Below, piece after piece: positions 35,850-61,634 of a stretch of DNA of 64,000 nucleotides. This DNA comes from Hydrococcus rivularis NIES-593. Lineage in GTDB: Bacteria > Cyanobacteriota > Cyanobacteriia > Cyanobacteriales > Microcystaceae. The DNA is taken from NCBI RefSeq assembly GCF_001904635.1, contig NZ_MRCB01000018.1, positions 1-64,000 on the forward strand, read 5' to 3'. The translations under genes were made by a program, and so were the position numbers. The stretch's first letter is position 1. Every line of letters starts with the position of its first letter. The notes below the pieces were generated by a model. That model made no database searches. It was not told where the DNA came from and worked only from the letters and a program-made list of their open reading frames with translations.

Positions 35850-36047
35850 TCTGTCAAGGATTATAGATAATTTTGTCAGCAGACAGAGCGATCGCGTCTC
35901 ATTCATGGGCTGTCGCATGTTGGGAAAAAGCGGAACTGAGAGAAGCATTGACAGGGTGCGATCGCATTCTCAACGACGAGTTTTCTGACTATCCAGAGAA
36001 ATCTCTGTACGCGATCGGCATAGTTGACGAGGCGAAAAAGCTTTAAT
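35850..36047 (+). pseudogene. Gene remnant containing a duplicated 51-bp segment
   Basis: An open stretch without a start reads ...AIASHSWAVACWEKAEL, continues with CDRILNDEFSDYPEKSL and ends in KKL. The composition is protein-like. Its first 51 bp (35887-35937) recur nearly identically at 42381-42430, where the frame soon ends. I take both as fragments of a lost gene family; the parent is not recognised. Confidence 0.4.
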
Positions 36048-36087: not shown

Positions 36088-37086
36088 TTAAGAAGCTTTG
36101 AGTTCCCTGGGGAAGACAATGCCCTTACCAGCCAAACTTGAGAACGCCTGACAATATCCCTGGCTTTCTTTGAGCAAATAATCCAGAAAGGTACGAGCAA
36201 CGAGCGAAAGTTTTTTCTCCTTGAGGAAGATGACGTGCCATTGGCGATGAATGGGAAAGCCCTCTACGTTAAGAATTGCCAGTTGATTCATGTCAGTGGC
36301 ACTCAGGCTATGCAGCGATAAAACTGCTAGCCCCAAACCTTCAACAACAGCCTGCTTGATAGCTTCATTACTATTCAGTTCTAGCTTGATCTGTACTGAG
36401 ACCCCCTGCTGGCGCAATAACTGTTCTACTGACTCGCGAGTTTGAGAACCTCGCTCTCTCACGATCAAGGATTCCTTTTCTAGAGACTCTAGAGGAAGAC
36501 GACATTGGCGTGTTAGGGGATGGCGTTTGGGCGCAACTAAGACTAACGGATTACAAAGAAATGACTCTGCTTCAATTTTTTCTTGTTCTGGCAAGCGACT
36601 GAGGATATAGAGATCGTCAAGGTTTTTATTGAGCCGCTCTAAAACCTCATTATGATTGGTAAACTCAAGAGAAATGCCGATATTGGGGTAGCGTTGGCAG
36701 AAGGAATTGAGTAGCTTAGGAATAAAGTACTTCGCAGTGGTTGCCGCAGCTAGGCGCAAGTGACCCTGTTCCATACCTCTAAACTCAGCTAGATTCGCCT
36801 CTAACTGCTCCAGTCGCTTAAAGATGATTTGACAGGCATCGAAAACTTCCTGACCTGCTGGTGTCAAATATACCTGCTTTCCTACCTGCTCAAATAGGGG
36901 CATTCCGAGCGCAGTGGAAAGATGTTTGATTTGAGAAGATACGGTGGGTTGTGAAAGATATAACTGTTTGGCTGCATGAGTGAAGCTACTGTGCTGCGCT
37001 GTTGTCTTAAAAACCTGTAATTGATTGAGCGTAATTGATTTCCAGAGAGGATTGGTTGGAAAACTGTCAGGGAAATTTGGTTTCAT
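36088..37086 (-). CDS. LysR-type transcriptional regulator (CbbR/CcmR-like)
   Basis: This 332-residue protein (start at ATG 37086; the upstream extension would read through its own operator) has an N-terminal winged HTH (TLNQLQVFKTTAQHSSFTHAAKQLYLSQPTVSSQIKHL) and a periplasmic-binding-protein-like effector domain. Resemblance to carbon-fixation regulators (CbbR, CmpR, CcmR) is suggested by both sequence style and context. It lies beside a SulP transporter and a carbonic-anhydrase-like gene on the same strand. Two copies of a palindromic site lie 26-94 bp upstream. Confidence 0.85.
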   Translation of the reverse strand: MKPNFPDSFPTNPLWKSITLNQLQVFKTTAQHSSFTHAAKQLYLSQPTVSSQIKHLSTALGMPLFEQVGKQVYLTPAGQEVFDACQIIFKRLEQLEANLAEFRGMEQGHLRLAAATTAKYFIPKLLNSFCQRYPNIGISLEFTNHNEVLERLNKNLDDLYILSRLPEQEKIEAESFLCNPLVLVAPKRHPLTRQCRLPLESLEKESLIVRERGSQTRESVEQLLRQQGVSVQIKLELNSNEAIKQAVVEGLGLAVLSLHSLSATDMNQLAILNVEGFPIHRQWHVIFLKEKKLSLVARTFLDYLLKESQGYCQAFSSLAGKGIVFPRELKAS

Positions 37087-37111
37087 GATGCTGTCAGATT
37101 GTATCTTAAAA

Positions 37112-37180
37112 ACTTTAACAATATTGATGTTGCTCAATTTAAGTTATATTCTACTTTAACAACATTAATGTTGTTAAAGT
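37112..37180. promoter_or_regulatory. Double LysR-type operator
   Basis: The second site, 37153-37180, is a perfect 28-bp palindrome with half-site ACTTTAACAACATT. The first, 37112-37139, is an imperfect copy starting ACTTTAACAATATT and lies 41 bp from the second, start to start. They sit between the LysR gene and its upstream neighbour. Autoregulation by LysR is the natural inference. Confidence 0.7.
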
Positions 37181-37271
37181 CGAGACAAACATCACAATTG
37201 CGCCGAGATTTAAGTCAAATCAGACGACATCATGCAAAAAGCTTTCCTCTGACAGCGGTTCGAGTTTCAGA

Positions 37272-37523
37272 TTAGCCGATCGACTCCAAGAGCAGGGATT
37301 GAATTTGTTTGGAAGCAAGAATTTTCCCCTGACAGATGATTTGACCGTTAACGATTAAAGCTGGGGTGCATCTAAGTCTTCGTCTATTTATTTCTCCGAG
37401 ATCGGAATTACAGTTCACCTTAGCGGGAACGCCAAGTTTGGCAACAGCCGTGCAAACGTTATTTTCCAGAAGACGACGACTCTCGGTATTTAAACCAATA
37501 ATTTCAATGTTAAGCGTATCCAT
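37272..37523 (-). CDS. Thioredoxin-like mini-protein lacking CxxC
   Basis: This 83-residue protein has the same fold pattern as the CxxC mini-thioredoxin at 43415. It has IEIIGLNTESRRL where that one has VEILGTGCKKCHQL, and CTPALIVNGQIICQGKILA where that one has RTPALAIEGKVVSQGKVIA. The redox CxxC is replaced by NTES. Three Cys elsewhere (VCTAV, VNCNS, RCTPA) plus one in IICQG are not in the thioredoxin position. It overlaps the 3' end of the carbonic-anhydrase-like gene by 14 bp, so the two are coupled. It may act as a binding or regulatory protein. Confidence 0.75.
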   Translation of the reverse strand: MDTLNIEIIGLNTESRRLLENNVCTAVAKLGVPAKVNCNSDLGEINRRRLRCTPALIVNGQIICQGKILASKQIQSLLLESIG

Positions 37524-38127
37524 AATTGACTTTTAGCTTTTCAGCCATTTGGGGAATTTCATTCGCGGGGAGAATTGATTTAACTTCTCGATCGAGTTTA
37601 AGAAAATAAAGCTCGACGTTAAGTTGTGGGTAGCGTTTTTTAATTGCCGAGTAAGCCCGATTTAAGTAATCTTTGTGAACCTGTTCTTCCCGGTCAGGAT
37701 TTTTACTTAATTGAGGGTCTATTAGACTGGCATAAGCCCCACAGTCCTGATGGTCGAAAATGATGACCTTTTCAACGTGGTGCAGTCGATAGGACAAATC
37801 CAGTTGATCCCAAAAAGCAGCAGCATCCGCTTGATGGGGAAAGCCCGCTAGCGCCAAAGAAGCTCCGGCTAGTGCCGTCCAGTCATACTGTTGGGCAAAA
37901 GTTGGCTCTAAAAACTGTTGTAATGCCGTTACAAAGCGGAAATCAATGCAACTAAGCACTAAAGCTTTAGGCTGATGAGCGGCGGCAATAGCAGGCTGAG
38001 TAACTGGGAGGAAAGGGAAAGCGATCGCCCCAGCCAGAAGCGATCGCATAAACGTGCGTCTCGCCATTTGATGGGATTGACCGCAGGGACAGGCTTTTAA
38101 CTTACAAGTGGGAGAGATTTGCTCCAT
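37510..38127 (-). CDS. Tat-exported beta-carbonic-anhydrase-like protein
   Basis: This 205-residue protein has a Tat signal (ARRTFMRSLLAGA, about 22-50) after a Cys-rich leader (CKLKACPCGQ). The beta-carbonic-anhydrase zinc and catalytic residues are present: C60, D62 and R64 in SCIDFRF, and H126 and C129 in DHQDCGAY. It probably interconverts CO2 and bicarbonate in the periplasm or lumen. The usual middle helices are shortened, so it belongs to a divergent branch and activity is not certain. It is grouped with a SulP transporter on the same strand, which supports a role in inorganic-carbon supply. An internal start at the second Met (38067) is possible. Confidence 0.8.
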   Translation of the reverse strand: MEQISPTCKLKACPCGQSHQMARRTFMRSLLAGAIAFPFLPVTQPAIAAAHQPKALVLSCIDFRFVTALQQFLEPTFAQQYDWTALAGASLALAGFPHQADAAAFWDQLDLSYRLHHVEKVIIFDHQDCGAYASLIDPQLSKNPDREEQVHKDYLNRAYSAIKKRYPQLNVELYFLKLDREVKSILPANEIPQMAEKLKVNYGYA

Positions 38128-38138
38128 CGCTGTTCGCT

Positions 38139-38303
38139 CTATCTCTCCAGAAACCCTTTATGAGTCAACGATTTCGTCTCCACAGGCACTTCTTGAAGGT
38201 TCAAAGCTGTTTTGGGGAATAGCAATTGGTACAAATCTCCTATCTGGGAAATAAGTTCTTGCCAGAGAGCTGTTAAAGATTTGAGAATGGTTTGGCGTTT
38301 CAT
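38139..38303 (-). CDS. Candidate 54-aa small ORF
   Basis: The frame from ATG 38303 encodes 54 residues, beginning MKRQTILKSLTALWQ and ending FLER. It is amphipathic, without Cys or membrane segment. AAGGA lies 8 nt upstream of the ATG. It fills the gap between the SulP and carbonic-anhydrase-like genes on the same strand, with 11 bp to the next start, as expected of an operon member. No family recognised. Confidence 0.5.
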   Translation of the reverse strand: MKRQTILKSLTALWQELISQIGDLYQLLFPKTALNLQEVPVETKSLTHKGFLER

Positions 38304-38397
38304 GGACTTTTTCCTTAATTAAAGTTAATGTGGGTTATGGTTTCACTCCCCTCAATCGAAGGGCTAAGCAGAAAATCTAAGAACCAAGGGACTTTCT

Positions 38398-40059
38398 TTA
38401 CCGCTCCATCAAAGCGGATGGCTGGCGGCATTCTTCAAGATTTGGGTTGAGCGAGCAAATAGCGGCATCAGTAGTCTCAAAACAGTTTTCTTGACCGATC
38501 TTGTCTAGCAAACCACTGCGTTCTAATCTTTGTTGAACTTGAGGCTGTAAACCACTGAGCAGCAAGCGACATCTTCGACGGGTCAAATCCTGATAGATAT
38601 CTTCTAGGGCAACTAAACCCGTCGTATCTATATTCGGCACAAACCGCATCCGCAAAATCAGATACTTAACTTGGGGTTCATCCCGCAAAAAGGTAACAAA
38701 CCGTTCGGCAGCCCCAAAAAATAGCGGTCCATCAACCCGGTAGACGGCAATTTCTTGAGTCAGTTCTAGCGGTACGCCCGGAGGAAAGGCTTCGGTTTCG
38801 GGAACTTTGGCTAAGTTGAGGTCGCTCATCCGTTTAATCAATAACGCTCCCGCCGCTATCAATCCTACCTCCACGGCGAGGATCAAGTCGAAGCCAATCG
38901 TAACCAGCCAAGTCAGCAGCATGACGGCTAAGTCGGCGTAACTGGCACGCACCAGTAAGCCGATCGCTTCCCACTCGATCATCCGAACGCTAGTCACCAT
39001 GAGAATCCCCGCTAGTGCCGCCAGAGGAATTTGAGAGGCTAAAGGAGCCAACGCCAGCACGATCGACGCTAAGGCTACTCCATGAATGATTCCAGAGAGG
39101 CGGGTTTTGCCTCCAGAGCGCACATTGACCGCCGTGCGAGCGATCGCCCCAGTGGCTGGAATTCCTCCAAAGAAAGGCACCACAATATTCGCCAGTCCTT
39201 GACCGATGAGTTCGCGGTTGCTGTCGTGCTTCTCGCTGACCGTCATGCCATCGGCGACAACAGCAGACAGTAAAGATTCGATACTGCCTAGTGCAGCTAA
39301 AGCAAGGGCTGGATTAATCAGTTCTCGCAACAGCCCCCAGTCTTGCCAGTGGGGAATGGTTTGCGGCAGGGGCAGCGATTGAGGGATCTCGCCAATCGTA
39401 GGAACATTGAGGTGGAATAAAGAAGCCAATCCGGTTGCCAATACCAATCCCACCAGAGAACCGGGAATGGCAGTGGTAATTCTTGCCCAAAATAACTTGG
39501 TCGCGATGACCGTAGCGGCTACAACTACGGCTGCCCAATCGATGTTGTCCAGATGGGTGAGAGTTGCCCAGAGTCCGGGCAGAAAATGTTCGCTGCGCGG
39601 TAAGTGCAACCCAAAAAAGTTATTGAGTTGACCGCAAAAAATAATGACAGCGATGCCGTTGGTAAAGCCTGCTGTCACGGGGTAGGGAATAAATTTAACC
39701 AGTTGACCTAATTTGGCAATTCCCAGGGCGACTTGAATGATTCCAGCCATCACCCCAGCTATCCATACCTTCTCAATGCCGTACTTGGCAACAATCCCTA
39801 CCAGGATAACTGCCATCGCCCCAGTTGGTCCGGTTATCTGTACGGGAGAGCCGCCAAATACCGCCGCTACAATTCCCGCCACAATTGCCGTATAGAGTCC
39901 GGCTTTGGGTTCTACTCCACTTGCTACTGCAAATGCCAGTGCCAGGGGAAGCGCAACCACTGCCGCCGTCAGCCCTCCGGTCAGGTCGCCCCGCCAGTGG
40001 GCAAAGAAGCGACTGAACCGCAACCATTGCTCGCCACTGAGAGTAATTGTTACTGTCAT
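38398..40059 (-). CDS. SulP-family anion transporter (BicA-like) with STAS domain
   Basis: This 553-residue protein (ATG 40059; a TTG three codons upstream is nearer the AGGAGG) has a transmembrane SulP core of 10 or more helices, with PLALAFAVASGVEPKAGLYTAI and GPTGAMAVILVG near the N-terminus. A C-terminal STAS domain (about 430-553, with IDTTGLVALEDIYQDL) follows. The closest known cyanobacterial role is BicA, a low-affinity Na+-dependent bicarbonate importer; sulfate transport is the alternative. The linked carbonic-anhydrase-like and LysR genes favour bicarbonate. Confidence 0.85.
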   Translation of the reverse strand: MTVTITLSGEQWLRFSRFFAHWRGDLTGGLTAAVVALPLALAFAVASGVEPKAGLYTAIVAGIVAAVFGGSPVQITGPTGAMAVILVGIVAKYGIEKVWIAGVMAGIIQVALGIAKLGQLVKFIPYPVTAGFTNGIAVIIFCGQLNNFFGLHLPRSEHFLPGLWATLTHLDNIDWAAVVVAATVIATKLFWARITTAIPGSLVGLVLATGLASLFHLNVPTIGEIPQSLPLPQTIPHWQDWGLLRELINPALALAALGSIESLLSAVVADGMTVSEKHDSNRELIGQGLANIVVPFFGGIPATGAIARTAVNVRSGGKTRLSGIIHGVALASIVLALAPLASQIPLAALAGILMVTSVRMIEWEAIGLLVRASYADLAVMLLTWLVTIGFDLILAVEVGLIAAGALLIKRMSDLNLAKVPETEAFPPGVPLELTQEIAVYRVDGPLFFGAAERFVTFLRDEPQVKYLILRMRFVPNIDTTGLVALEDIYQDLTRRRCRLLLSGLQPQVQQRLERSGLLDKIGQENCFETTDAAICSLNPNLEECRQPSALMER

Positions 40060-40083
40060 CGGGTTCAATGAACCTCCTTGCAA

Positions 40084-42028: not shown

Positions 42029-42349
42029 ATGACATTTAAGCCCAGTTACTTTAAAGCCGATCTTTTTAAAGTGTTGTCTAATCCAATCCGGATTCAGATT
42101 CTCGATACCTTGCGGCTGGGCGAACAAAGCGTCAATTATATTGCCGATTGGCTCGATGTCGAGCCTTCTTCAGTCTCTCAGCAGCTGGCAGTGCTGCGGA
42201 GTCGCAACCTAGTCACAAGCCGCAAGCAAGGTAACTACGTTTTTTATTCGGTGAGAGATCCAGCACTTTTTAAGGTACTCGATGCCGCCTTGGAGGTGTT
42301 TAACAACCATCTAGTAGAGATGCGCGATACCTTAGAACAAATGGAATAA
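42029..42349 (+). CDS. ArsR-family regulator without cysteines
   Basis: This 106-residue winged HTH protein (LFKVLSNPIRIQILDTLRLGEQSVNYIADWLDVEPSSVSQQLAVLRSRNLV) has no cysteine at all, so the classical ELCVCDL metal site is absent. Cys-free ArsR proteins sense non-metal signals or use other residues. Its neighbours suggest links to the carbon-transport or metal cluster; the target is unknown. Confidence 0.85.
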   Translation: MTFKPSYFKADLFKVLSNPIRIQILDTLRLGEQSVNYIADWLDVEPSSVSQQLAVLRSRNLVTSRKQGNYVFYSVRDPALFKVLDAALEVFNNHLVEMRDTLEQME

Positions 42350-42445
42350 GTGAGAACTGTATTTTTAGATACGCTGCGATAGCGATCGCGTCTCATTCAT
42401 CGGCTGTCGCATGTTGGAAAAAGCGGAACTTTGTGGCAACCCTTG

Positions 42446-42467
42446 ACCTTATACCAAGGTATAAGGT
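42446..42467. promoter_or_regulatory. MerR-type operator
   Basis: ACCTTATACC-N2-GGTATAAGGT is a perfect 10-bp inverted repeat overlapping a TTGACC -35 box (42443-42448). With the long spacer typical of MerR promoters, the -10 would lie near 42469 (TACCAT). This fits autoregulation by the MerR gene that begins here. Confidence 0.65.
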
Positions 42468-42472
42468 TTACC

Positions 42473-42928
42473 ATGAAGACAACAGAAATAAATATCCAAC
42501 TTAAGATGCTACACATCAGTGAAGTTGCCCGCCAGTTGGGATTGAATCCCCAAACTATCTACTTCTGGGAGCGGATCGGACTGATCGTGCCGCCGCAGCG
42601 CACGGAGTCGGGCTACCGTCTCTTCAGTCAAGAAGATGTCGATCGCCTCGCTTTCATCACTCGCGCTAAGTCCCTGGGCTTAACCCTGGAGGAAATTCGC
42701 GAGATTCTGGCACTCAAAAACGGGCGATCGCTGACTTGTCAAGCACTCTACGAGCGACTCCTGAAAAAATTAGAGCAGATCGACCAAAATATTCGCCATT
42801 TACAAGCGTTGCGCCAGGAACTTTTACCGCTATTAAATCGCTGTCGCCAAAACCGCGATCGCGCCGAACTCACTCAAGAGTGTGTCGTGCTAGAAGAAGC
42901 TGCGGCGGCGAGAAATTACCCTAAGTAG
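42473..42928 (+). CDS. MerR-family metal-type regulator
   Basis: This protein has 151 residues from ATG 42473; an in-frame ATG at 42506, directly before LHISEVARQLGL, gives a more usual MerR N-terminus and would fit a promoter overlapping the operator. The N-terminal MerR HTH reads HISEVARQLGLNPQTIYFWERIGL. The dimerisation helix is flanked by Cys 35 residues apart (LTCQ and NRCRQ), with a third Cys 13 residues on (QECVV). The 35-residue spacing matches the MerR/PbrR/ZntR metal-binding arrangement. It probably senses a soft metal. Confidence 0.8.
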   Translation: MKTTEINIQLKMLHISEVARQLGLNPQTIYFWERIGLIVPPQRTESGYRLFSQEDVDRLAFITRAKSLGLTLEEIREILALKNGRSLTCQALYERLLKKLEQIDQNIRHLQALRQELLPLLNRCRQNRDRAELTQECVVLEEAAAARNYPK

Positions 42929-43005
42929 TCATGCTGGGACTAAAAATTGTATCTGAAAAGGTTCCGAAACAATGCTGAAAACCATTGGCTTGAGCAACTC
43001 TATTT

Positions 43006-43335
43006 TTACCCTCTGGGAAAATACATAATAACTCCCACGCCTAACAAAACGATCGCACAGCCGATGACATCAAAGCGATCGGGAGGAATGCGATCGATCT
43101 GCCAACCCCACAGGAGGGACAAGAGAATGAAAAATCCGCTATAAGCAGCATAAACTCGCCCAAAGTGGGCGGGTTGTAGAGTGGGGACAATGCCGTAAAG
43201 CATCAAAATTACCCAACCCAGAAGCGCAAAATGGAAACTTCTGCCTTCCCGCAGCCACAGCCAAACTAAATAACCGCCTCCGATTTCACACAGTCCCGCT
43301 AGGATGAAATAAACCAGCGATCACGCTACATCCAT
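43006..43335 (-). pseudogene. UPF0060 (YnfA-like) membrane protein with early in-frame TGA
   Basis: A 104-residue frame from 43320 reads [20 protein letters not shown] and on to the end, matching the full UPF0060/YnfA protein with four helices. Immediately before it the frame is ATG-GAT-GTA-GCG-TGA (43335-43321), so a stop codon separates the only ATG from the body. No ATG, GTG or TTG lies between the TGA and the conserved start. An internal start near 43206 would lose the first helix. It is probably a recently inactivated gene, or starts at a rare CTG. Confidence 0.65.
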
Positions 43336-43414
43336 TATCTGTCCTTTGAGGTTACAGACCGTTCATTTTAGCAGCTTTTTCAATTATCAGTTGCATCGCA
43401 GGAGATCTAAGACT

Positions 43415-43660
43415 ATGAATACTATTAAAGTTGAAATTTTAGGTACGGGTTGTAAGAAATGCCACCAGCTAGAAGCCAATGCTAAAGAAGCGATCGCGGC
43501 GGCTGGTCTGGAAGCGGAAGTACAACACATCACCGACACGATGGAAATTATCAAACGCGGCGTAATGCGGACTCCAGCCCTAGCCATCGAAGGCAAAGTC
43601 GTCAGTCAGGGCAAGGTCATCGCGCCGGAAGAAATCCAACCCTTGTTGCCGACTAAGTAA
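43415..43660 (+). CDS. CxxC mini-thioredoxin
   Basis: This 81-residue protein (ATG 43415 after AGGAG) has the thioredoxin-like fold with the redox motif GTGCKKC near the N-terminus and the cis-Pro region MRTPALAIEGKVVSQGKV. It belongs to the small family often encoded next to UPF0718/ArsP permeases and ArsR regulators, as here. It is probably a thiol-disulfide or metal carrier for the permease downstream. Compare the CxxC-less relative at 37272. Confidence 0.85.
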   Translation: MNTIKVEILGTGCKKCHQLEANAKEAIAAAGLEAEVQHITDTMEIIKRGVMRTPALAIEGKVVSQGKVIAPEEIQPLLPTK

Positions 43661-43702
43661 CGCGATCGCTGGCACAATTTACTCCGCAAAGCAAGGCTGC
43701 CA

Positions 43703-43868
43703 TGTACACACAAGTGAACCAATCTAGCCAAAGTCCCTGCCAAATTGCCCCCCAGCCCCCAAATTTGGGGGAGCAAGAGTCACAAATTGATTCTCAAAGC
43801 CCCCAGAATTGGGGGTTTGGGGGCTTCGATTTTAAGCAAATCGATAGACAGATCGACTTGTGTGTACA
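43703..43868. repeat. MITE-like inverted-repeat element upstream of permease gene
   Basis: TGTACACACAAGT (43703-43715) and its exact complement ACTTGTGTGTACA (43856-43868) enclose about 140 bp. The interior contains CCCCCAAATTTGGGGG-type hairpins common in cyanobacterial spacers. It lies between the mini-thioredoxin and the permease, ending 27 bp before the permease start. Confidence 0.6.
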
Positions 43869-43895
43869 CCGTAACTAAAACAAGGAGGAGCAACG

Positions 43896-45212
43896 ATGCA
43901 TTTTTGGAAAGAAGAATGGAAACCCCTTGCCCTGATTGTGGCAGTTTTTCTGGTCTGTTTTTACCTGCCCGTAGAAGCGATCGCCAATTCCGAACGGCTG
44001 AGAAATGCCTTCTTTGAATCGCTGTATCTGGTGCGCTGGTATGCTCGAGAACACGTTTTGCTGTGTCTGATCCCAGCGTTTTTCATTGCCGGAGCGATCG
44101 CGGTTTTCATCTCCCAAGAGTCGGTAATGAAGTACCTGGGAGCCAGGGCAAACAAGGTACTCGCCTATGGCGTAGCCTCGATTTCGGGAACGATTTTAGC
44201 GGTCTGTTCCTGTACCGTACTGCCGTTGTTTGCCGGAATTTATCGCATGGGTGCGGGATTGGGACCCGCCACCGCCTTTCTCTATTCTGGTCCGGCGATT
44301 AACATCTTGGCAATCATTCTCACGGCGCGGGTATTAGGGCTGAAACTGGGGATCGCCAGAGCAGTCGGGGCAATTCTCTTCAGCATTATCATTGGCTTGG
44401 CAATGGCGTTCATTTTCCGCAAGGAAGAACTGGAGAAAATCGAAGCCCAAGCGGGAATGCCAGAACCCGAAGTAGCTCGCCCTCTGTGGCAAAACGTGCT
44501 ATTCTTTGCCGTCTTGGTGGGCATTTTGGTGTTTGCTAACTGGGCAAAACCTGGCGCACCTGTAGGACTCTGGGCTAGCATCTATGCAGTTAAGTGGTTA
44601 ATTACAGGGTTATTGGCGATCGCTCTAGCAGCAATCCTCATCTTCTGGTTTCAGTTAAATGCCGGTAAGGTTATCTTAATCGCAGGCGTTACCGCGATTC
44701 TTGCCCTGCGCTTTTCCCAGGAGCCACTGATTCCCTTTGCTGCCGGAGTTGTCGGTCTTTCCTGGCTCACCAGCACCAACAAAGACGAAGCCGGGGAATG
44801 GTTTTCCTCTTCCTGGGACTTTGCCAAGCAGATTTTGCCCCTTTTACTGATGGGAGTGCTGGTGGCGGGAGCATTGCTCGGTCGTCCCGGTCACGAAGCC
44901 TTGATTCCTTCAGAATGGGTAACGCTGGCAGTTGGCGGGAACTCGCTGCTGTCTAACTTCTTCGCTGCTTTCGCGGGAGCCTTCATGTACTTTGCCACCC
45001 TCACAGAAGTTCCCATCCTCCAAGGGTTGATTGGCAGTGGCATGGGGCAGGGTCCAGCCCTGGCACTTTTGTTGGCGGGTCCGGCGCTGTCGCTGCCGAA
45101 TATGCTGGTCATCCGCAGCATCATGGGAACGCAGAAAACCGTCGTCTTTATCTCGTTAGTCGTCGTCATGGCAACGATTACAGGGATGGCTTACGGGGCT
45201 ATCTGGGGCTAG
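43896..45212 (+). CDS. UPF0718/ArsP-like permease
   Basis: This 438-residue integral membrane protein has about 10 helices and the conserved VCSCTVLPLFAGIYRMGAGLG motif, in which the paired Cys mark ArsP-type organoarsenical exporters and relatives. A second half repeats the pattern (ALLLAGPALSLPNMLVIRSIMG). GGAGGAG precedes the ATG. With the mini-thioredoxin and ArsR/MerR genes upstream it forms a probable metalloid or thiol-metabolite export group. The substrate is not determined. Confidence 0.82.
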   Translation: MHFWKEEWKPLALIVAVFLVCFYLPVEAIANSERLRNAFFESLYLVRWYAREHVLLCLIPAFFIAGAIAVFISQESVMKYLGARANKVLAYGVASISGTILAVCSCTVLPLFAGIYRMGAGLGPATAFLYSGPAINILAIILTARVLGLKLGIARAVGAILFSIIIGLAMAFIFRKEELEKIEAQAGMPEPEVARPLWQNVLFFAVLVGILVFANWAKPGAPVGLWASIYAVKWLITGLLAIALAAILIFWFQLNAGKVILIAGVTAILALRFSQEPLIPFAAGVVGLSWLTSTNKDEAGEWFSSSWDFAKQILPLLLMGVLVAGALLGRPGHEALIPSEWVTLAVGGNSLLSNFFAAFAGAFMYFATLTEVPILQGLIGSGMGQGPALALLLAGPALSLPNMLVIRSIMGTQKTVVFISLVVVMATITGMAYGAIWG

Positions 45213-45248
45213 AAACAGTTAGCTAAAATCTCGTAAAATCTCTTATAA

Positions 45249-45596
45249 TCTCTAACTCTGGAAAACAGATTTGTCAAGATTGAAGCAGCAGCTAACTTGC
45301 TAGGCGTATCAGTAGAAACGTTGCGTAAGTGGGCAAAGACAGGTGAGTTACTACCAGATAGGAAAACTAAAGGTGGTACTCGCTTTTATGATGCTGCGAA
45401 ACTCTTGGCTCTTGGCGATGGAGATTCGCCTACTGTATGTTATGCGAGAGTTAGTAGTTCTGACCAGAGATCTGACCTAGATAGACAGCAAACAATGTTG
45501 GAGACATATTGTGCTGCTAAAGGTTGGAAATCAGAAGTTATTACTGAAGAAGGTGACAAACTGTTTGAGGAAACCAAGAAAAATGTTGAGCTTTAA
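45249..45596 (+). pseudogene. tnpA: Truncated IS607 TnpA serine recombinase
   Basis: The frame has the MerR-like helix-turn-helix (AANLLGVSVETLRKWAKTGELLPDRKT, then GGTRFYD) and the catalytic serine segment CYARVSSSDQRSDLDRQ. It ends after EVITEEGDKLFEETKKNVEL, about 80 residues short of the usual roughly 190. No ATG, GTG or TTG lies before the conserved start. The end overlaps tnpB by 14 bp. It is non-functional in transposition as it stands. Confidence 0.8.
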
Positions 45597-46750
45597 GACT
45601 GAATTACAACTAAATAACAAACAACAGTCAAAAATGGCTCAACACGCTGGTTGTGCTAGATTCGCCTTCAACTGGGGACTAGCTGTTACTAAAGAAATTC
45701 TCGACCACAATAAAACTAATCCAGACATTCCCAACAGCTATTGACCTTCATAAAAGATTTGTGGCTGAGGTTAAATCAGTTAACCAATGGCTTTATAAGT
45801 CATCTAAATGCGCTCCACAGCAAGCTCTACGAGACCTTAGATTAGCTTGGGATAGATGTTTTAAAAAGATAGCTAAACCGCCTAAATTCAAGAAGAAGTA
45901 TCGCAAAGATGGCTTTTATCTTGAAGGTTCTATCAAGGTTGAGTCTAACCGTATTCGATTACCTGTAATAGGTTGGGTCAAGACTTATGAGACCTTACCA
46001 ACTGGAATTATTAAGAATGTTAGACTAACTCGTCAAGCTAACCGTTGGTTTGTTGCTTTCAAGCTTGACCATACACCACCAGTACCTATTAAAACAAGTA
46101 ACGTCATAGGTATTGACTTAGGTGTTAAGTCATTGGCTGTATGCTCCGACGGAACTACTTTTGAAAACCCTAGAGCGTATAGAAGATTAAAGCGGAAGCT
46201 AGCTAAGTTACAACGCACCTTTAGTCGTAAGGTTAAAGGCTCTAACAATCGTAAGAAAGCTGGTTTGGCTGTTGCTAAACTTCACTATCGAATTAGTTGC
46301 ATTCGTAAAGACACCATTCATCAACTCACATCATGGTTAACCAAGAACCACGGAACCATAGTTATTGAGGATTTGAATGTTAGCGGAATGCTTAGAAACC
46401 ATCGCTTAGCTAATGCAATAGCTGATAGTGGTTTATCTGAATGTCGTCGTCAACTGGAATATAAATCTAAGTTGTATGACACGAAATTAATCATAGCTGA
46501 TAGATACTATCCTTCTAGTCAGTTGTGTTCTAGATGTGGGCATCGTCAGAAGATGCCTCTCCAAGAACGTATATTCAATTGTCAAAAGTGTGAGATGAGC
46601 TTAGACCGCGACTTCAACGCAAGTCTTAACCTAGCATCTCTGGCGGTAAGCTCTACCGTCATCGCTTGTGGAGCAGTACACAAACCTTCAACCCAGGTTG
46701 AAGGACTGTTGAGAAACAAGAATGAGACAGATAGTTACAGATTAGTGTGA
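45583..46750 (+). pseudogene. tnpB: TnpB RNA-guided nuclease, single frameshift
   Basis: It starts MLSFKTELQLNN. The first frame stops at 45744, and the protein continues in another frame (IDLHKRFVAEVKSVNQW) to 46750, so one frameshift near 45725-45740 breaks it. The RuvC residues are intact (GIDLGVKSLAV, VIEDLNVSG, DRDFNASLNLA), as is the zinc ribbon LCSRCGH / FNCQKC. TnpB proteins cut DNA guided by an RNA from the element's right end. The first 50 residues are split from the nuclease body here. Confidence 0.85.
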
Positions 46751-46786
46751 TTATCATAGGTTCTCAAGAGCGGTTGAGAAGTTAAG

Positions 46787-47170
46787 ATGAGACTCAAGGT
46801 TATGCTCCCAACGAAAATTCTGGTGGATGAAGAAGTCACCAAAATCATTGCAGAGGCGGAAAACGGTTCCTTTTGCCTGCTACCCCATCACATTGACTGG
46901 GTTAGCGCTTTGGTTCCGGGGCTGCTATCCTTTGTTTCTGTTCGGGGACAGGAAAAATTTCTCGCTGTGGACGAAGGCATTCTGGTAAAGTGCGGCACCC
47001 AAGTGCTAGTATCAACTCGACAGGCAGTGCTGGGCGACAATCTAGGAACGTTGCGGGACACGGTTGCCAGCCAGTTTCGCGCGATCGACGAGCGAGAAAA
47101 GTTAGCTCGTTCGGCTCTGGCAAAACTCGAAGCCAGCGTTATCCGGCACTTTATCGAGCTAGAGGAATGA
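46787..47170 (+). CDS. atpC: N-ATPase epsilon subunit
   Basis: This 127-residue protein has the epsilon beta-sandwich (MRLKVMLPTKILVDEEVTKIIAEAENGSFCLLPHH) and a helical C-terminus. It is the second gene of the canonical atpDCQRBEFAG N-ATPase order, but here it is the first gene left of the operon. Its ATG lies just after the right end of an IS607-type element, in the place where atpD should end. Its stop overlaps atpQ. Confidence 0.9.
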   Translation: MRLKVMLPTKILVDEEVTKIIAEAENGSFCLLPHHIDWVSALVPGLLSFVSVRGQEKFLAVDEGILVKCGTQVLVSTRQAVLGDNLGTLRDTVASQFRAIDEREKLARSALAKLEASVIRHFIELEE

Positions 47171-47520
47171 TGGACGATCCTGAAGTTCCCAAAAACCGAC
47201 ACCAACTCCAGAGAGACTTTACCCACAAGGTAGGAGTCAAGGAGAAGCACAAGCTGAGAGCTAGGCGAGAAAAGAGCAAGAGCGTCTGGTTTGGGTTGGG
47301 TCTGCTGGGACTGATCGGCTGGTCGGTAGTCGTGCCGACTTTGCTGGGAGTGGCGCTAGGAATTTGGCTCGATAGGCGAATGCCCAGTCGCTTTTCTTGG
47401 ACGCTGACGCTCATGTTTGCGGGGTTAATTCTGGGCTGTCTGAATGCTTGGCAGTGGGTAACTCGCGAGCAGGCATCGATACAGCGAACTGACGAGGAGG
47501 ACAGACAAGATAATGAATGA
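47167..47520 (+). CDS. atpQ: N-ATPase accessory membrane protein AtpQ (AtpI-like)
   Basis: This 117-residue protein has a charged N-terminal half and two hydrophobic helices (about 43-68 and 75-97). It is the AtpI-like assembly protein specific to N-ATPase operons. It overlaps atpC (ATGA) and atpR. Confidence 0.85.
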   Translation: MMDDPEVPKNRHQLQRDFTHKVGVKEKHKLRARREKSKSVWFGLGLLGLIGWSVVVPTLLGVALGIWLDRRMPSRFSWTLTLMFAGLILGCLNAWQWVTREQASIQRTDEEDRQDNE

Positions 47521-47815
47521 ACTTTTTCCCTTAACTTTTGCTCTAGCAGCAGGGAGCGGACTGGGTTTATTTTACTTCGGCGGTTTGTGGCTGACGGTAA
47601 AGCAGTTGCCAACGACGCGCCATCCGATCGCTTGGACGCTAGGCAGTCTTTTGGTACGGCTGGGCGTTGTCCTGGTCGGCTTTTATCTGATTATGGGCAG
47701 CCATTGGGAACGACTCTTGGCTTGCCTGCTGACTTTCCTGTGGGTGCGAAACTTAATGATACGCCGCTTGCAGGTTAAAGGACGCAAGGTCTCTGTTCTC
47801 GGTCGTCCCAGGTAA
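47513..47815 (+). CDS. atpR: N-ATPase accessory protein AtpR
   Basis: This 100-residue protein has three hydrophobic helices. It is the family-specific AtpR, of uncertain role, probably assembling the c ring. It overlaps the 3' end of atpQ by 8 bp. Confidence 0.85.
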   Translation: MNELFPLTFALAAGSGLGLFYFGGLWLTVKQLPTTRHPIAWTLGSLLVRLGVVLVGFYLIMGSHWERLLACLLTFLWVRNLMIRRLQVKGRKVSVLGRPR

Positions 47816-47819
47816 AACG

Positions 47820-48575
47820 ATGCAGATTACTCCCGATGCGATAATTATCTGGCAATGGGGAGCGGTGAAGTTGAATGCCACGCTGCTATTTACTTGGCTG
47901 GTGATGGTTCTGTTGGTATTTGGCTCTTGGCTGATAACGCGCCGACTATCTAATGGCGATCGCCGGAGGCGCACCTGCGGTGAGCGCTTGTCGCGGGGAC
48001 AAAATCTCCTGGAAGTTTTGGTAGAAGGGATTAGAGAGCAAATTCGTCAAATCGGCTTGTCCGATCCAGATCCTTATTTGCCCTTTCTCGGCACGCTTTT
48101 TATTTTCATTGCTGCCTGCAATATTTTGAGTATCGTACCCGGCTATCAACCGCCAACGGGTTCGATTTCTACTACGGCAGCCCTGGCAATCTGCGTCTTC
48201 GTTGCCGTTCCTTTTTATGGCATTCGCCGACAGGGGTTGGTCAGATACTTAAAACAGTATTTAGAGCCGAGTCCCTTGATGTTACCCTTTAATATTATTG
48301 GAGAGTTGTCGCGCACCCTGGCACTGGCAGTGCGGCTCTTCGGCAACGTGATGAGCGGTTCGACTGTCGCGGCGATCTTGCTATCCCTCACGCCACTATT
48401 TTTCCCGATTCTCATGCAGGCATTGGGATTGTTAACCGGAGTGCTGCAAGCTTATATTTTTTCCGTCCTCGCCTGCGTGTACATTGCCGCAGCCAGCCAG
48501 GTACAGGATGAAACGGGACGGCGATTGCCCTCCGGGCAGCGCCCTCAAGGGCGATCGCGCCAGCCTTCTCAATAA
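47820..48575 (+). CDS. atpB: N-ATPase subunit a
   Basis: This 251-residue membrane stator subunit has five to six helices. The essential Arg lies in SRTLALAVRLFGNVMSG, the stretch facing the c ring. It forms the ion half-channels. It lies 4 bp after atpR and 11 bp before atpE. Confidence 0.92.
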   Translation: MQITPDAIIIWQWGAVKLNATLLFTWLVMVLLVFGSWLITRRLSNGDRRRRTCGERLSRGQNLLEVLVEGIREQIRQIGLSDPDPYLPFLGTLFIFIAACNILSIVPGYQPPTGSISTTAALAICVFVAVPFYGIRRQGLVRYLKQYLEPSPLMLPFNIIGELSRTLALAVRLFGNVMSGSTVAAILLSLTPLFFPILMQALGLLTGVLQAYIFSVLACVYIAAASQVQDETGRRLPSGQRPQGRSRQPSQ

Positions 48576-48586
48576 AAATATATCGC

Positions 48587-48865
48587 ATGGATAATATTAG
48601 TCTGATCGGAATGGTATCGATTTTTACAGCCGGATTGACGATGGCGGTCGGTTCGGTGGGACCCGCCCTGGGAGAAGCGAGGGCAGTCGCCCAGGCATTG
48701 ATTTCTCTGGCGCAGCAGCCCGATGAAGCCAATACTATCACTCGCACCTTGTTTGTCGGCGTAGCCTTTATCGAAACAACTGGGATTTACTGCTTCGTCA
48801 TCAGCCTGATTTTAATTTTTGCCAATCCCTTCTGGAATTACGTGACGACTAAGGCGGGAGGCTGA
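48587..48865 (+). CDS. atpE: N-ATPase subunit c, Na+-type binding site
   Basis: This 92-residue hairpin of two helices has a Na+-type site: E30 (VGPALGE), E63, T64, T65 and Y68 (IETTGIY). These correspond to Q32, E65, S66, T67 and Y70 of the Na+ ring of Ilyobacter tartaricus. This is the sequence basis for calling the complex a sodium-translocating N-ATPase. Confidence 0.92.
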   Translation: MDNISLIGMVSIFTAGLTMAVGSVGPALGEARAVAQALISLAQQPDEANTITRTLFVGVAFIETTGIYCFVISLILIFANPFWNYVTTKAGG

Positions 48866-48868
48866 TCC

Positions 48869-49666
48869 GTGCAAATCGACTGGTTTACCCTTGTCGCCCA
48901 GATCGTCAATTTTCTGATTTTGCTGGCACTGCTCAAGCGCTTTCTCTACGGTCCGATCGTGCGAGCGATGGAGCGACGGGAGCAAAAAATCGCTGGCTAC
49001 ATGCAAGAAGCGCGAGAGAAAGTACGAATTGCCGAACAAGAAAGCGATCGCTATCGCCAACTGCAACAGGCGTTGGTCGAACAGCGAGAAGCCGCGATCG
49101 CCCAAATGAAAGCCGAAGTAGAGCAAATGCGAGAGGTTTTGTTACAAAATGTCCGCGACGAAGTAAATGCCATGCAATCTCGCTGGCACGAGGCGATCCA
49201 ACGCCAGCAAAGTGCTTTTCTGCGAGAGTTGCGCTATCGATCGCTTCAGGAGATTCAGACTGCAATCCGCCAAGCCTTGCGGGACTTAGCCGATGCCGAT
49301 CTAGAGCAACAGGCGATCGCGGTTTTCCTACGGCGCATCCAGAAACTGACTGGGGAAGAGCGACAGGCGCTTTGTAGCGTTGCTTCTCCCAGAAACCACA
49401 ATGCCCCGGAGGTAGTGGTAGCAAGTAGTTTTGCGCTCCCGGAAGCCTTGCGACAGGATATTGCCCAGGTATTGCGGGAACAGCTACCTAACGATGTCAG
49501 GCTGCGGTTTGAGACGACGGAGGACTTAATCTGCGGCATCGAGCTAAGATCGGCAGGTTGCAAGCTTGCCTGGAGTCTGGAGAATTACTTAGCTAGCTTG
49601 GAAAATAACTTGTCTGCTGTTTTTGCCCAAAAGACTGACAAGAAAATTAGGGAAATCATGAAGTAA
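48869..49666 (+). CDS. atpF: N-ATPase subunit b with delta-like C-terminus
   Basis: This 265-residue protein starts at GTG. One N-terminal membrane helix is followed by a long coiled-coil stalk and a C-terminal region (about 165-265, with ALPEALRQDIAQVLREQLP) similar to delta. This is usual for N-ATPase operons, which lack a separate delta gene. In intact operons atpA follows at once; here it does not. Confidence 0.9.
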   Translation: MQIDWFTLVAQIVNFLILLALLKRFLYGPIVRAMERREQKIAGYMQEAREKVRIAEQESDRYRQLQQALVEQREAAIAQMKAEVEQMREVLLQNVRDEVNAMQSRWHEAIQRQQSAFLRELRYRSLQEIQTAIRQALRDLADADLEQQAIAVFLRRIQKLTGEERQALCSVASPRNHNAPEVVVASSFALPEALRQDIAQVLREQLPNDVRLRFETTEDLICGIELRSAGCKLAWSLENYLASLENNLSAVFAQKTDKKIREIMK

Positions 49667-59083: not shown

Positions 59084-59989
59084 TCAAAATTGCGCGATCG
59101 CCTCGGCACCTGCGACAATTTCCAGGATCTCTTGAGTAATTGCCGTCTGACGCTCGTGCTGAAATTGAGCGTTCAATCGTGCCAGTCGCTCTTCGATGTT
59201 TTGCTCGGCTACCTGCATCGAGGCAAGACGGCTAGCATTCTCACTCTTGAGAGACTCGGCGAAGGCGCGATACAAGCAGACAAAGAAATATTGGCGGATT
59301 AGCGCAGCCAATAACTGAGTCCAGTCCATCGTAAAGGTAGGTAGGGTACGGGAGTGCCATCGCTCCTGCTGCAAATGCTCCAACCAGGCGCGATCGAGGG
59401 GGAATAAATGATGGAGGTGAGGTTCGCAAGCGGTGTTAGAGCGAGGCTGGTTGTAGAGGAGGACAATAGGACCGATTTGCTCTTGGGAGCGCCAGGCTTC
59501 GAGGTATAGTAACAGTTCTTGAACCATTGGGGTAATGCCTGCCAGAGAACTGGGCATGGGAAAACTAGCAGCGATCGCCACTCCCCGCGCTTCTAGAGGC
59601 GCAACGATCCGAGTACCGACGACTATGACAGTTCGCTCCGCTGGCTGGGGAGCGAGATGGTTGAGGCAATCGACGCTGTAGCGGGCAATTTGTTCGTTGA
59701 ACTGACCGCACATTCCCCGATCCGAACCAAAGACGATCGCGCCCAATCGCTGGTGCTTTTCGGCTGCCGCCCAGTCAATCCCTTTGAAGCCAGCATTTTC
59801 CGCCCGGGCGCGTTCTTTCAGTACCACTTGCAGTCCCAAATCGATGGTACGGGAGTATTCGGCTAAAGATTCTACCGCTCGCTCGTACTGGCGAATGCTG
59901 GCAGCCGCCAGGACTTTCATCGTCTTAACCACGGATTGAAGTTCTCGGGCGATCGCGATCTGGCGCTGGAACGACTCAAGGGCGGTCAT
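59084..59989 (-). CDS. atpG: N-ATPase gamma subunit
   Basis: This 301-residue rotor protein has the N-terminal helix (RELQSVVKTMKVLAAASIRQYERAVES) and C-terminal helix (ASRLASMQVAEQNIEERLARLNAQFQHERQTAITQEILEIVAGAEA). The central region is divergent from the housekeeping gamma, as in N-ATPases. It is 106 bp downstream of atpA, and both are on the opposite strand from atpCQRBEF. Confidence 0.92.
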   Translation of the reverse strand: MTALESFQRQIAIARELQSVVKTMKVLAAASIRQYERAVESLAEYSRTIDLGLQVVLKERARAENAGFKGIDWAAAEKHQRLGAIVFGSDRGMCGQFNEQIARYSVDCLNHLAPQPAERTVIVVGTRIVAPLEARGVAIAASFPMPSSLAGITPMVQELLLYLEAWRSQEQIGPIVLLYNQPRSNTACEPHLHHLFPLDRAWLEHLQQERWHSRTLPTFTMDWTQLLAALIRQYFFVCLYRAFAESLKSENASRLASMQVAEQNIEERLARLNAQFQHERQTAITQEILEIVAGAEAIAQF

Positions 59990-60095: not shown

Positions 60096-61634
60096 CTACA
60101 CACTCAAACCAGTATAGTTGCGAATCGCTTGCTTGACGATGCGGACGAGGCGATCGCGCTCCTTTTCCGTTAGCGTTTCTCCCGACTCGATGCGATCGCA
60201 CAGGGCTGGCAACTCCTTCCTTACGGTCGTACAGACGGCTTTTTCCGCCGTCCTAATTCGTTCGATTGGTAGTTCGTCAAATGTCCCTGCCGTCACCGCC
60301 AGCAAAACGGCAATCTGATCGGCTACTGGCATTGGTTCGTATTGATTCTGTTTGAGGATTTCCCGCACGCGGCGACCTCTTTCGAGGGTTTGGCGAGTCG
60401 CTTCATCCAAGCGAGTGCCAAAGCGGGAGAAGATTTCCAACTCTTCAAACTGGGAATAGGAGAGGCGCAAATCCCCAGCAACAGCTCGATAGGCGCTTAA
60501 CTGGGTTTTTCCTCCGACCCGCGATACTGATTTGCCGACATCGACGGCAGGTAATATGCCTTTTTGAAATAAAGTGGGGGAGAGATAAATCTGTCCGTCG
60601 GTAATCGAAATAAGATTGGTGGGAATGTAAGCCGCAATATTCTGTGCTTCGGTTTCGACGATGGGCAGGGCGGTTAAAGAACCCCCGCCCCGTTCGGCAT
60701 TTAAGTGGGTAGCCCGTTCCAACAAGCGGGAATGGATGTAGAAGATATCGCCGGGAAAGGCTTCGCGACCGGGAGGACGGCGCAACAGGAGCGACAGTTC
60801 TCGGTAGGCGCGGGCGTGGGCAGTTAAATCGTCGTAGACAATTAAAACATCTCGTCCCTGCTCCAGGAAATATTCTGCCATAGCGGTGGCGGCGTAGGGA
60901 GCAACGAATTGGAGTCCTGGCGGTTCTTCTCCGGCGGCAACCACCACCAGGCAATAATCCATCGCCCCGTGCCTTTGCAGGTCGGCGATTAGTTTGGCGA
61001 CGGCGGAACTGCGCTGTCCGATGGCACAGTAGATGCAGATAACCTCTCGACCTTTTTGGTTGAGGATGGTGTCGAGGGCGATCGCGGTTTTTCCTGTCTG
61101 GCGATCGCCTAAAATTAGTTCCCGCTGTCCCCGACCAATGGGAATCAAGGCATCTATGACTTTCAGCCCCGTTTGCAAGGGGACGGTGACGGGAGCGCGA
61201 TCGCGAATGGCAGGGGCTTCCCGTTCTGCCGGATAGCGTTGCGCCACTCGCACGGTTCCCCGTCCGTCTAGGGGGCGACCCATCGGGTCGATTACCCGCC
61301 CCAGCAGCGTCTCGCCTACGGGTACGTCCAGCACCCGTCCGGTACGGCGCACCTCGCATCCGGCTTTCAAGCGATCGCTTTTGTCGAGCAAAATAATGCC
61401 CACCTCATCGGGATCGAGGTTGAAGACCATGCCTAGCCCATCGCCACCGAATAGCACGACTTCTTCCGACTGCACCCCGGGCAAACCGGATACGCGGGCA
61501 ATGCCGTGACCGACCGAGCGAACAATGCCGATTTCCTGGGATTTTAGTTCCATTCTCAGATCTGCCAGGACGCGATCGAAGGTGCTAAAAGTATCATCTA
61601 GGAGTAATTGCAGTATGTTGTCATCCGGATTCAT
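60096..61634 (-). CDS. atpA: N-ATPase alpha subunit
   Basis: This 512-residue non-catalytic F1 subunit has Walker [39 protein letters not shown] and the C-terminal helical domain. It belongs after atpF in N-ATPase operons but lies about 12 kb away in reverse orientation. A purine-rich GAGAGAGCAGG precedes its ATG. Confidence 0.93.

What the first reader, a model, noticed from the sequence alone, without database searches (positions are those of the whole stretch)
45213..46790. N-ATPase beta subunit (atpD) is absent and an IS607 element lies where it should be
atpD normally sits just upstream of atpC. Here the space from the permease stop to the atpC ATG holds only a degenerate IS607-type element, and no beta subunit is visible anywhere in the window. 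The enzyme would lack its catalytic subunit unless atpD is elsewhere or the housekeeping beta is borrowed.
Basis: partly seen in the sequence, partly recalled or inferred. Interest (0 to 1): 0.7.

Follow-up and report, generated by a model that had tools for sequence, protein, structure and literature searches.

The report
Three-piece sodium-type ATPase, beta gene moved
A cyanobacterium's second rotary ATPase looked as if it lacked its catalytic subunit, but an intact gene for that subunit lies elsewhere in the genome, so the enzyme is most likely complete but encoded in three separate pieces; in a sister species with the same moved gene the other pieces are broken or missing from that place.

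Summary
The local observation holds: between the permease stop (45212) and the atpC ATG (46787) lies only a broken IS607-type element. That the enzyme lacks beta does not hold. An intact N-type atpD (TIGR03305, 815.7 bits, cut-off 752) lies on contig C4 between pntA and crtE. The genes form three blocks: atpC-Q-R-B-E-F (46787-49666), atpA-G inverted (61634-59084), and atpD in trans. The one-contig congener G002 has the same relocated atpD and remnant, so this is no assembly artefact; but there C, Q, R, B and E are missing from the neighbourhood and F, A and G are broken. G002's atpD has six residues never seen in 91 other N-type betas; G000's has none. Trees of D and A put G000 in the same clade, so the moved gene looks cognate. 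D is not next to C in 8 of 39 cyanobacterial genomes examined (at least four changes on a tree; in G002 C is gone) and in 1 of 60 non-cyanobacterial loci. Verdict: a fragmented, probably functional N-ATPase; a new variant of a known kind.

The parts
46787..47170 (+). atpC (N-type epsilon), first gene of the remaining C-Q-R-B-E-F block
   Evidence: TIGR03166 145.8 bits, cut-off 100.1
47170..47520 (+). atpQ (ATPase gene 1)
   Evidence: TIGR02230 134 bits, cut-off 46.7
47513..47815 (+). atpR
   Evidence: TIGR03165 80.9 bits, cut-off 55.5
47820..48575 (+). atpB (N-type subunit a)
   Evidence: TIGR03306 358.9 bits, cut-off 302.1
48587..48865 (+). atpE (N-type subunit c; Glu30 and Glu63-Thr-Thr-x-x-Tyr68 read from the sequence)
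   Evidence: TIGR03322 146.4 bits, cut-off 130.85
48869..49666 (+). atpF (N-type subunit b with a weak delta-like C-terminal part)
   Evidence: TIGR03321 251.1 bits, cut-off 224.7; delta model NF004402 matched at 176-249, E 5.9e-6 but only 26.4 bits against its cut-off of 115
59084..59989 (-). atpG (N-type gamma), in the inverted A-G block
   Evidence: TIGR03323 318.4 bits, cut-off 282.35
60096..61634 (-). atpA (N-type alpha), in the inverted A-G block
   Evidence: TIGR03324 846.4 bits, cut-off 750.5
35933..36046 (+). remnant of an N-type atpD, matching residues 419-454 of 455. The intact atpD lies outside the window at G000:C4:16025-17392 (+), equal to L038:8026-9393
   Evidence: E 4.4e-8 to TIGR03305 positions 416-449; 80.6% aa identity over 36 residues; 87% DNA identity over 117 bp to the 3' end of the C4 gene
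45297..45596 (+). truncated tnpA of the IS607-type element
   Evidence: MerR HTH plus positions 2-40 of 145 of the resolvase model
45583..46750 (+). tnpB of the IS607-type element, broken into two frames (first piece to 45744, second 45761-46750)
   Evidence: PF12323 on the first piece; PF01385 and PF07282 on the second
43896..45212 (+). ArsP_1-type permease upstream of the gap; in Myxosarcina its homologue lies upstream of atpD-atpC
   Evidence: PF03773 247 bits; L080 gene order
35887..35937 (+). direct repeat copy that abuts (overlaps by 5-6 bases) the start of the atpD remnant
   Evidence: sequences printed and aligned; G002 matches
42381..42430 (+). second copy of that direct repeat, just upstream of a MerR gene
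   Evidence: 54 bp at 94% shared with a G002 repeat copy; sequence

Best explanation
This is a genuine N-type rotary ATPase whose nine-gene operon was broken into three gene blocks before this species split from its congener G002. The blocks are atpC-Q-R-B-E-F, an inverted atpA-G pair about 10 kb away, and an intact atpD relocated between pntA and crtE on another contig. Beta is most likely made from the atpD(-crtE) locus and assembles in trans with alpha, gamma, epsilon and the membrane part, giving an ATP-driven ion pump. The IS607 remnant is a later or incidental occupant of the gap. Shown: presence, open frames, positions, the relocation and the A-G inversion shared with G002, cognate phylogeny of D and A. 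Inferred: transcription, assembly in trans, Na+ pumping, order of events.
For: All nine subunit frames are open and each exceeds the curated cut-off of the NCBIfam model named in the parts list (atpD: TIGR03305). The genome search for PF00006 found four proteins: housekeeping alpha and beta, N-type alpha and N-type beta. G002, a one-contig genome, has the same pntA-atpD-crtE order, the same D remnant and the same A orientation relative to F. In a 386-genome phylum sample, 20 genomes have N-beta, and the same 20 have N-epsilon and N-alpha. The D tree and the A tree both put G000 in one clade with the same relatives. In G002, C, Q, R, B and E are missing from the neighbourhood, F, A and G are broken, no N-epsilon is found genome-wide, and its D has six residues never seen in 91 others, including E253G where all 91 have E; G000's D has none. 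Housekeeping beta differs at none of 482 positions between the two. So D seems to lose constraint when the rest is lost.
Against: No expression or protein data exist here. dN/dS of D between the two species (0.085) is like its neighbours (pntA 0.076, pntB 0.103, crtE 0.134), so the relaxation in G002 rests on a few radical changes. At two of the 13 differing positions (52 and 194) it is G000 that has the rarer residue. No second genome with this intact three-way split was found. No promoter-like site was found on the + strand between pntA and the atpD ATG (5 sites in the whole 2-kb stretch, shuffles 2.6 +/- 1.3), and sites round the gap are at chance level (4 found, shuffles 3.6 +/- 1.8).
Confidence: 0.82

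Rival explanations
1. The enzyme is already dead or dying: fragmentation is the first stage of decay, further advanced in G002, and the intact ORFs are merely young pseudogenes.
For: G002 shows the same layout with C, Q, R, B and E missing from the neighbourhood and F, A and G broken; an atpD remnant and a broken IS element lie in the region.
Against: All nine frames are open in G000. None of the 13 D differences gives G000 a residue unseen in 91 others. D and C are apart in six further cyanobacterial genomes that have both genes.
Confidence: 0.13
2. The N-type complex borrows the housekeeping beta subunit, and the C4 gene serves something else.
For: A housekeeping beta is present (C21). G002 keeps a full-length N-type atpD although other N-type genes are missing or broken.
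Against: A cognate N-type beta is present and intact, so borrowing is not needed. In G002 that beta has collected odd residues such as E253G and L240P. In the 386-genome sample N-beta is never found without N-alpha and N-epsilon.
Confidence: 0.03
3. The C4 atpD came by lateral transfer from another N-ATPase and replaced the native gene, whose remnant is at 35933. (This concerns the origin of D and can be true together with the best explanation.)
For: The remnant and the C4 gene differ at 13% of 117 bp, more than the two species' D loci do (95.5% DNA identity over the 9.1-kb segment that holds D).
Against: D and A fall in the same clade. The remnant in G002 resembles the C4 gene for about 15 bp past the stop codon, with some mismatches, which suggests a copy within the lineage. 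The trees cannot exclude transfer from a close relative.
Confidence: 0.12

Closest known systems
N-ATPase operon (beta-epsilon-Q-R-a-c-b-alpha-gamma), as described in PMC4154653 and PMC5376962 (passages read)
   Same: All nine subunits with N-type sequence profiles, AtpQ and AtpR, long b subunit, housekeeping F-type alpha and beta also present
   Different: Not one cluster: beta is on another contig and alpha-gamma are inverted about 10 kb away
Split F-type loci of cyanobacteria (beta-epsilon apart from the rest), PMC4154653 passages
   Same: A rotary ATPase made from separate loci in the same phylum
   Different: There the split is between gamma and beta, and beta stays with epsilon; here beta is parted from epsilon in the N-type enzyme
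[quoted passage not shown]
   Same: A split N-type locus is already in print
   Different: Two N-ATPase copies there; here one set, with atpR, in three pieces
IS607-type insertion sequences (tnpA serine resolvase plus tnpB; family traits recalled)
   Same: MerR-HTH/resolvase piece followed by TnpB domains
   Different: tnpA is truncated and tnpB frameshifted; single remnant in this genome

Membership tests
N-ATPase | Subunit sequences match the N-type ('alternate F1F0') profiles above curated cut-offs | tested here: met
   alpha, beta, gamma, epsilon, a, c and b all above their TIGR033xx/TIGR03166 cut-offs
N-ATPase | AtpQ and AtpR present between epsilon and a | tested here: met
   TIGR02230 and TIGR03165 above cut-off, in order C-Q-R-B
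N-ATPase | No separate delta; delta absent or fused with b | tested here: inconclusive
   b is 265 aa and its C-terminus hits a delta model far below that model's cut-off (26.4 bits against 115). A separate N-type delta was not searched for in the genome; no ORF for one was seen within the C-F or A-G blocks
N-ATPase | All genes in one cluster in the order beta-epsilon-X-X-a-c-(b delta)-alpha-gamma (ProAD's working rule, PMC11738941, passages) | tested here: not met
   Three separate loci. It is an N-ATPase by sequence and is called here a split variant, not a canonical N-ATPase operon
N-ATPase | Occurs beside a housekeeping F- or A-type enzyme | tested here: met
   Housekeeping beta on C21, alpha on C65
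N-ATPase | ATP-driven ion pumping | not testable with these tools
   Needs biochemistry
IS607 | TnpA with MerR-type HTH and serine-resolvase domain | tested here: met
   Both domains hit in the 99-aa piece, the resolvase over 39 residues only
IS607 | Downstream tnpB | tested here: met
   PF12323, PF01385, PF07282 over two frames
IS607 | Intact element able to move | tested here: not met
   tnpA truncated, tnpB frameshifted

The most novel reading that the evidence does not exclude
Cyanobacterial N-ATPases have repeatedly and perhaps adaptively uncoupled the catalytic beta gene from the rest: at least four changes on the tree, among 8 of 39 genomes examined, against one interrupted locus among 60 non-cyanobacterial loci. 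Beta supply in trans, here in front of crtE and beside the transhydrogenase genes, could then act as an independent control over assembly of the pump.
Probability: 0.2. Interest if true: 0.55.

Novelty: new variant of a known kind. Interest (0 to 1): 0.4.

Why it matters
It turns an apparent loss of a catalytic subunit into a case of a multi-subunit machine kept in three loci, with a sister species in which the other loci have decayed. That pair is a natural test of whether a detached subunit stays under selection only while its partners exist. It also warns that searches which look for N-ATPases as one gene cluster in a fixed order may overlook such enzymes; whether any database does so here was not checked.

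Tried and rejected
Assembly artefact: rejected, because the one-contig genome G002 has the same atpD site and remnant.

Empty site in congeners: G001 and G003 have crtE-DUF212, but neither atpD nor pntA was found in the DNA held upstream of crtE (1.7 kb in G001, 6.4 kb in G003). So no clean pre-insertion site was seen, and the insertion boundary is not mapped.

IS607 as the cause: not supported. The element is a single remnant and the D remnant is not beside it. TnpB genes also lie next to broken junctions in G033 (L049) and G416 (L147), but no background rate was measured, so this is only a lead.

Strong relaxed selection on G002 atpD: not seen in dN/dS; seen only as six private residues. A control on housekeeping beta gave 0 differences, with 19 other sequences aligned.

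Not searched genome-wide in G002: Q, R, B, E, F, G and the permease; only N-type epsilon and the beta/alpha family were.

The look-up of Dibrova et al. 2010 found nothing held. What is said of that paper comes from citing papers and recall. Papers were seen as search listings and passages only, none whole.

Full report
What is at the reported place. Between the stop of an ArsP_1-type permease (43896-45212) and the ATG of atpC (46787) there are only the remains of one IS607-type element. A 99-residue tnpA piece carries a MerR-type HTH and 39 residues of the resolvase domain, and tnpB is spread over two frames. A search of the window's own genome with this 1574-bp stretch found only itself and a 63-bp, 76% match. 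So the description of the gap is right.

The beta subunit is not missing from the genome. A search of the whole assembly (5.14 Mb, 67 contigs) for the ATP-synthase alpha/beta domain found four proteins: housekeeping alpha (C65) and beta (C21), an alpha in the window at 61634-60096 on the minus strand, and a beta on contig C4. The C4 beta is N-type: 815.7 bits to TIGR03305 against a cut-off of 752. The window alpha is N-type too, with an N-type gamma after it. The enzyme is therefore encoded in three places: atpC-Q-R-B-E-F, atpA-G inverted about 10 kb downstream, and atpD between pntA and crtE on C4 (pntA and crtE named by eye). All nine proteins are above the cut-offs of the NCBIfam models named in the parts list.

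A remnant lies in the window. The profile search also hit 35933-36034 (E 4.4e-8, profile positions 416-449): residues 419-454 of 455 of a second N-type atpD, 80.6% identical to the C4 protein and 87% identical in DNA over 117 bp. It abuts a direct repeat of about 50 bp whose other copy lies at 42381-42430 beside a MerR gene. In the G002 copy of the remnant, similarity to the C4 gene runs about 15 bp past the stop codon, with some mismatches. This suggests, weakly, that the remnant and the C4 gene are copies of one gene that had already been parted from atpC.

The congener G002 has the same layout in decay. G002 is one contig of 4,986,817 bp. Its atpD sits between pntA and crtE and is 97.1% identical. 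The C10 neighbourhood is largely collinear, in segments of 86-97% DNA identity, but the MerR gene, the repeats and the D remnant are arranged differently. C, Q, R, B, E and the permease have no match in the 30 kb taken there, F is in three pieces, A matches only over residues 1-185 and G is broken. No N-type epsilon was found anywhere in G002 and no full-length N-type alpha; the other subunits were not searched genome-wide. Of 13 amino-acid differences between the two atpD proteins, G002 has a residue never seen in 91 other distinct N-type betas at six positions, including E253G where all 91 have E; G000 has none, though at positions 52 and 194 G000 has the rarer of the two residues. Housekeeping beta differs at none of 482 residues, with 19 others aligned. 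Against this, dN/dS of atpD between the two species is 0.085, like its neighbours, so the loosening in G002 is recent or mild. An earlier count with 96 other rows, before identical rows were removed, gave E in 96 of 96 at position 253 and, among 157 near-invariant positions, one departure for G002 and none for G000.

The relocated gene belongs to this enzyme. In trees of D (46 rows) and A (46 rows), G000 falls in one clade with the same relatives: L065, L061, L054, L067, L045, L046 or L047 (one genome) and L055/L064. The rows were G000 and the 45 most similar in each case. The D clade also holds L062 and G002, for which no full A was available.

How rare is it? In a sample of 386 cyanobacterial genomes drawn evenly from the phylum, 20 have N-type beta, and the same 20 have N-type epsilon and alpha. 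In 19 of these 20 the D and C matches lie within 160 bp of each other; G000 is the exception. Adding four relatives (G002, G025, G033, G057) and 15 further cyanobacterial loci gives 39 genomes: 31 with D next to C, and 8 without (G000, G002, G033, G057 and the genomes of L069, L072, L079 and L086). In two of these (G416, and one of two epsilons in G418) the contig ends within about 600 bp of C, so a second D next to it cannot be excluded. The loci were chosen by likeness to the C4 protein and are not a random sample. On a D tree of 35 rows (33 cyanobacterial; six of the 39 genomes were not fetched) the separated state needs at least four changes, which starred branches also force. Among 60 non-cyanobacterial loci (at least two from one assembly), 59 have C within 189 bp of D and one (L131, Thiothrix) has a gap of 3.8 kb.

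Ancestral place of D. In Myxosarcina (L080, the same contig as G052's) the order is Trx-permease-three ORFs of 178, 170 and 85 aa-D-C-Q-R-B-E-F-A-G, with the permease 85% identical to the window's. So the gap where the IS607 lies is a likely former seat of D. That the IS element removed D is not shown.

How it most likely works. Beta from the C4 locus joins alpha-gamma and the epsilon-a-c-b set after translation; this is inference. The c subunit has Glu30 and Glu63-Thr-Thr-x-x-Tyr68, read from the sequence; the Burkholderia N-type c ring has Glu30, Glu61, Thr62, Met63 and Tyr66 and predominantly binds protons (PMC5376962 passages). The Thr at the Met position is as in Na+ rings as I recall, so Na+ is a guess. 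In Synechococcus sp. PCC 7002, N-ATPase transcripts did not rise at high salinity (PMC3468840 passages).

What is in print. Split F-type loci and one split N-type locus (Nitrosococcus halophilus) are described in PMC4154653 (passages). ProAD identifies N-ATPases by a single gene cluster in a fixed order, then checks by trees and by hand (passages). Four searches of the held library (which listed 8 of 8, 15 of 75, 12 of 305 and 12 of 300 papers) showed no title on split N-ATPases in cyanobacteria; the founding paper was not held. So absence from print is not established. The size of G002 is, as I recall, that of Pleurocapsa sp. PCC 7327; this was not checked.

Noticed in passing
window 42029-45212: ArsR, MerR, thioredoxin and ArsP_1 permease genes in a row; a Trx-permease pair also lies beside N-ATPase genes in Myxosarcina (L080) and in two loci of one Syntrophobacteraceae MAG (L116, L137).
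   Followed up: partly
L147, L148, L151: In Pleurocapsales relatives the detached atpC-Q pair is followed by a large transporter ORF; in L147 it is a Na_H_Exchanger (PF00999), and those in L148 and L151 look alike by eye but were not scanned. This would fit a sodium circuit.
   Followed up: partly
L049:9111-9608 and L147:3178-4329: TnpB genes next to broken N-ATPase junctions in G033 and G416, as in the window; no background rate measured.
   Followed up: partly
window 36088-40083: LysR-type regulator, small thioredoxin-like protein, carbonic-anhydrase-like protein and SulP-type transporter, between the two copies of the ~50-bp repeat; names by eye.
   Followed up: no
L131:10001-15532: 3.8-kb gap between atpD and atpC in Candidatus Thiothrix singaporensis, the only such gap among 60 non-cyanobacterial loci.
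   Followed up: no
L061:4461-7057 and L072:155-1219: A 2.6-kb gap between atpB and atpE in a Nostocaceae MAG, and atpG in two pieces in Xenococcus sp. MO_188.B8.
   Followed up: no
G335:C127:2388-2666 and G418:C323, C412: A second, partial N-type epsilon in G335 and two N-type epsilon genes in G418: second N-ATPases, remnants or mixed assemblies.
   Followed up: no
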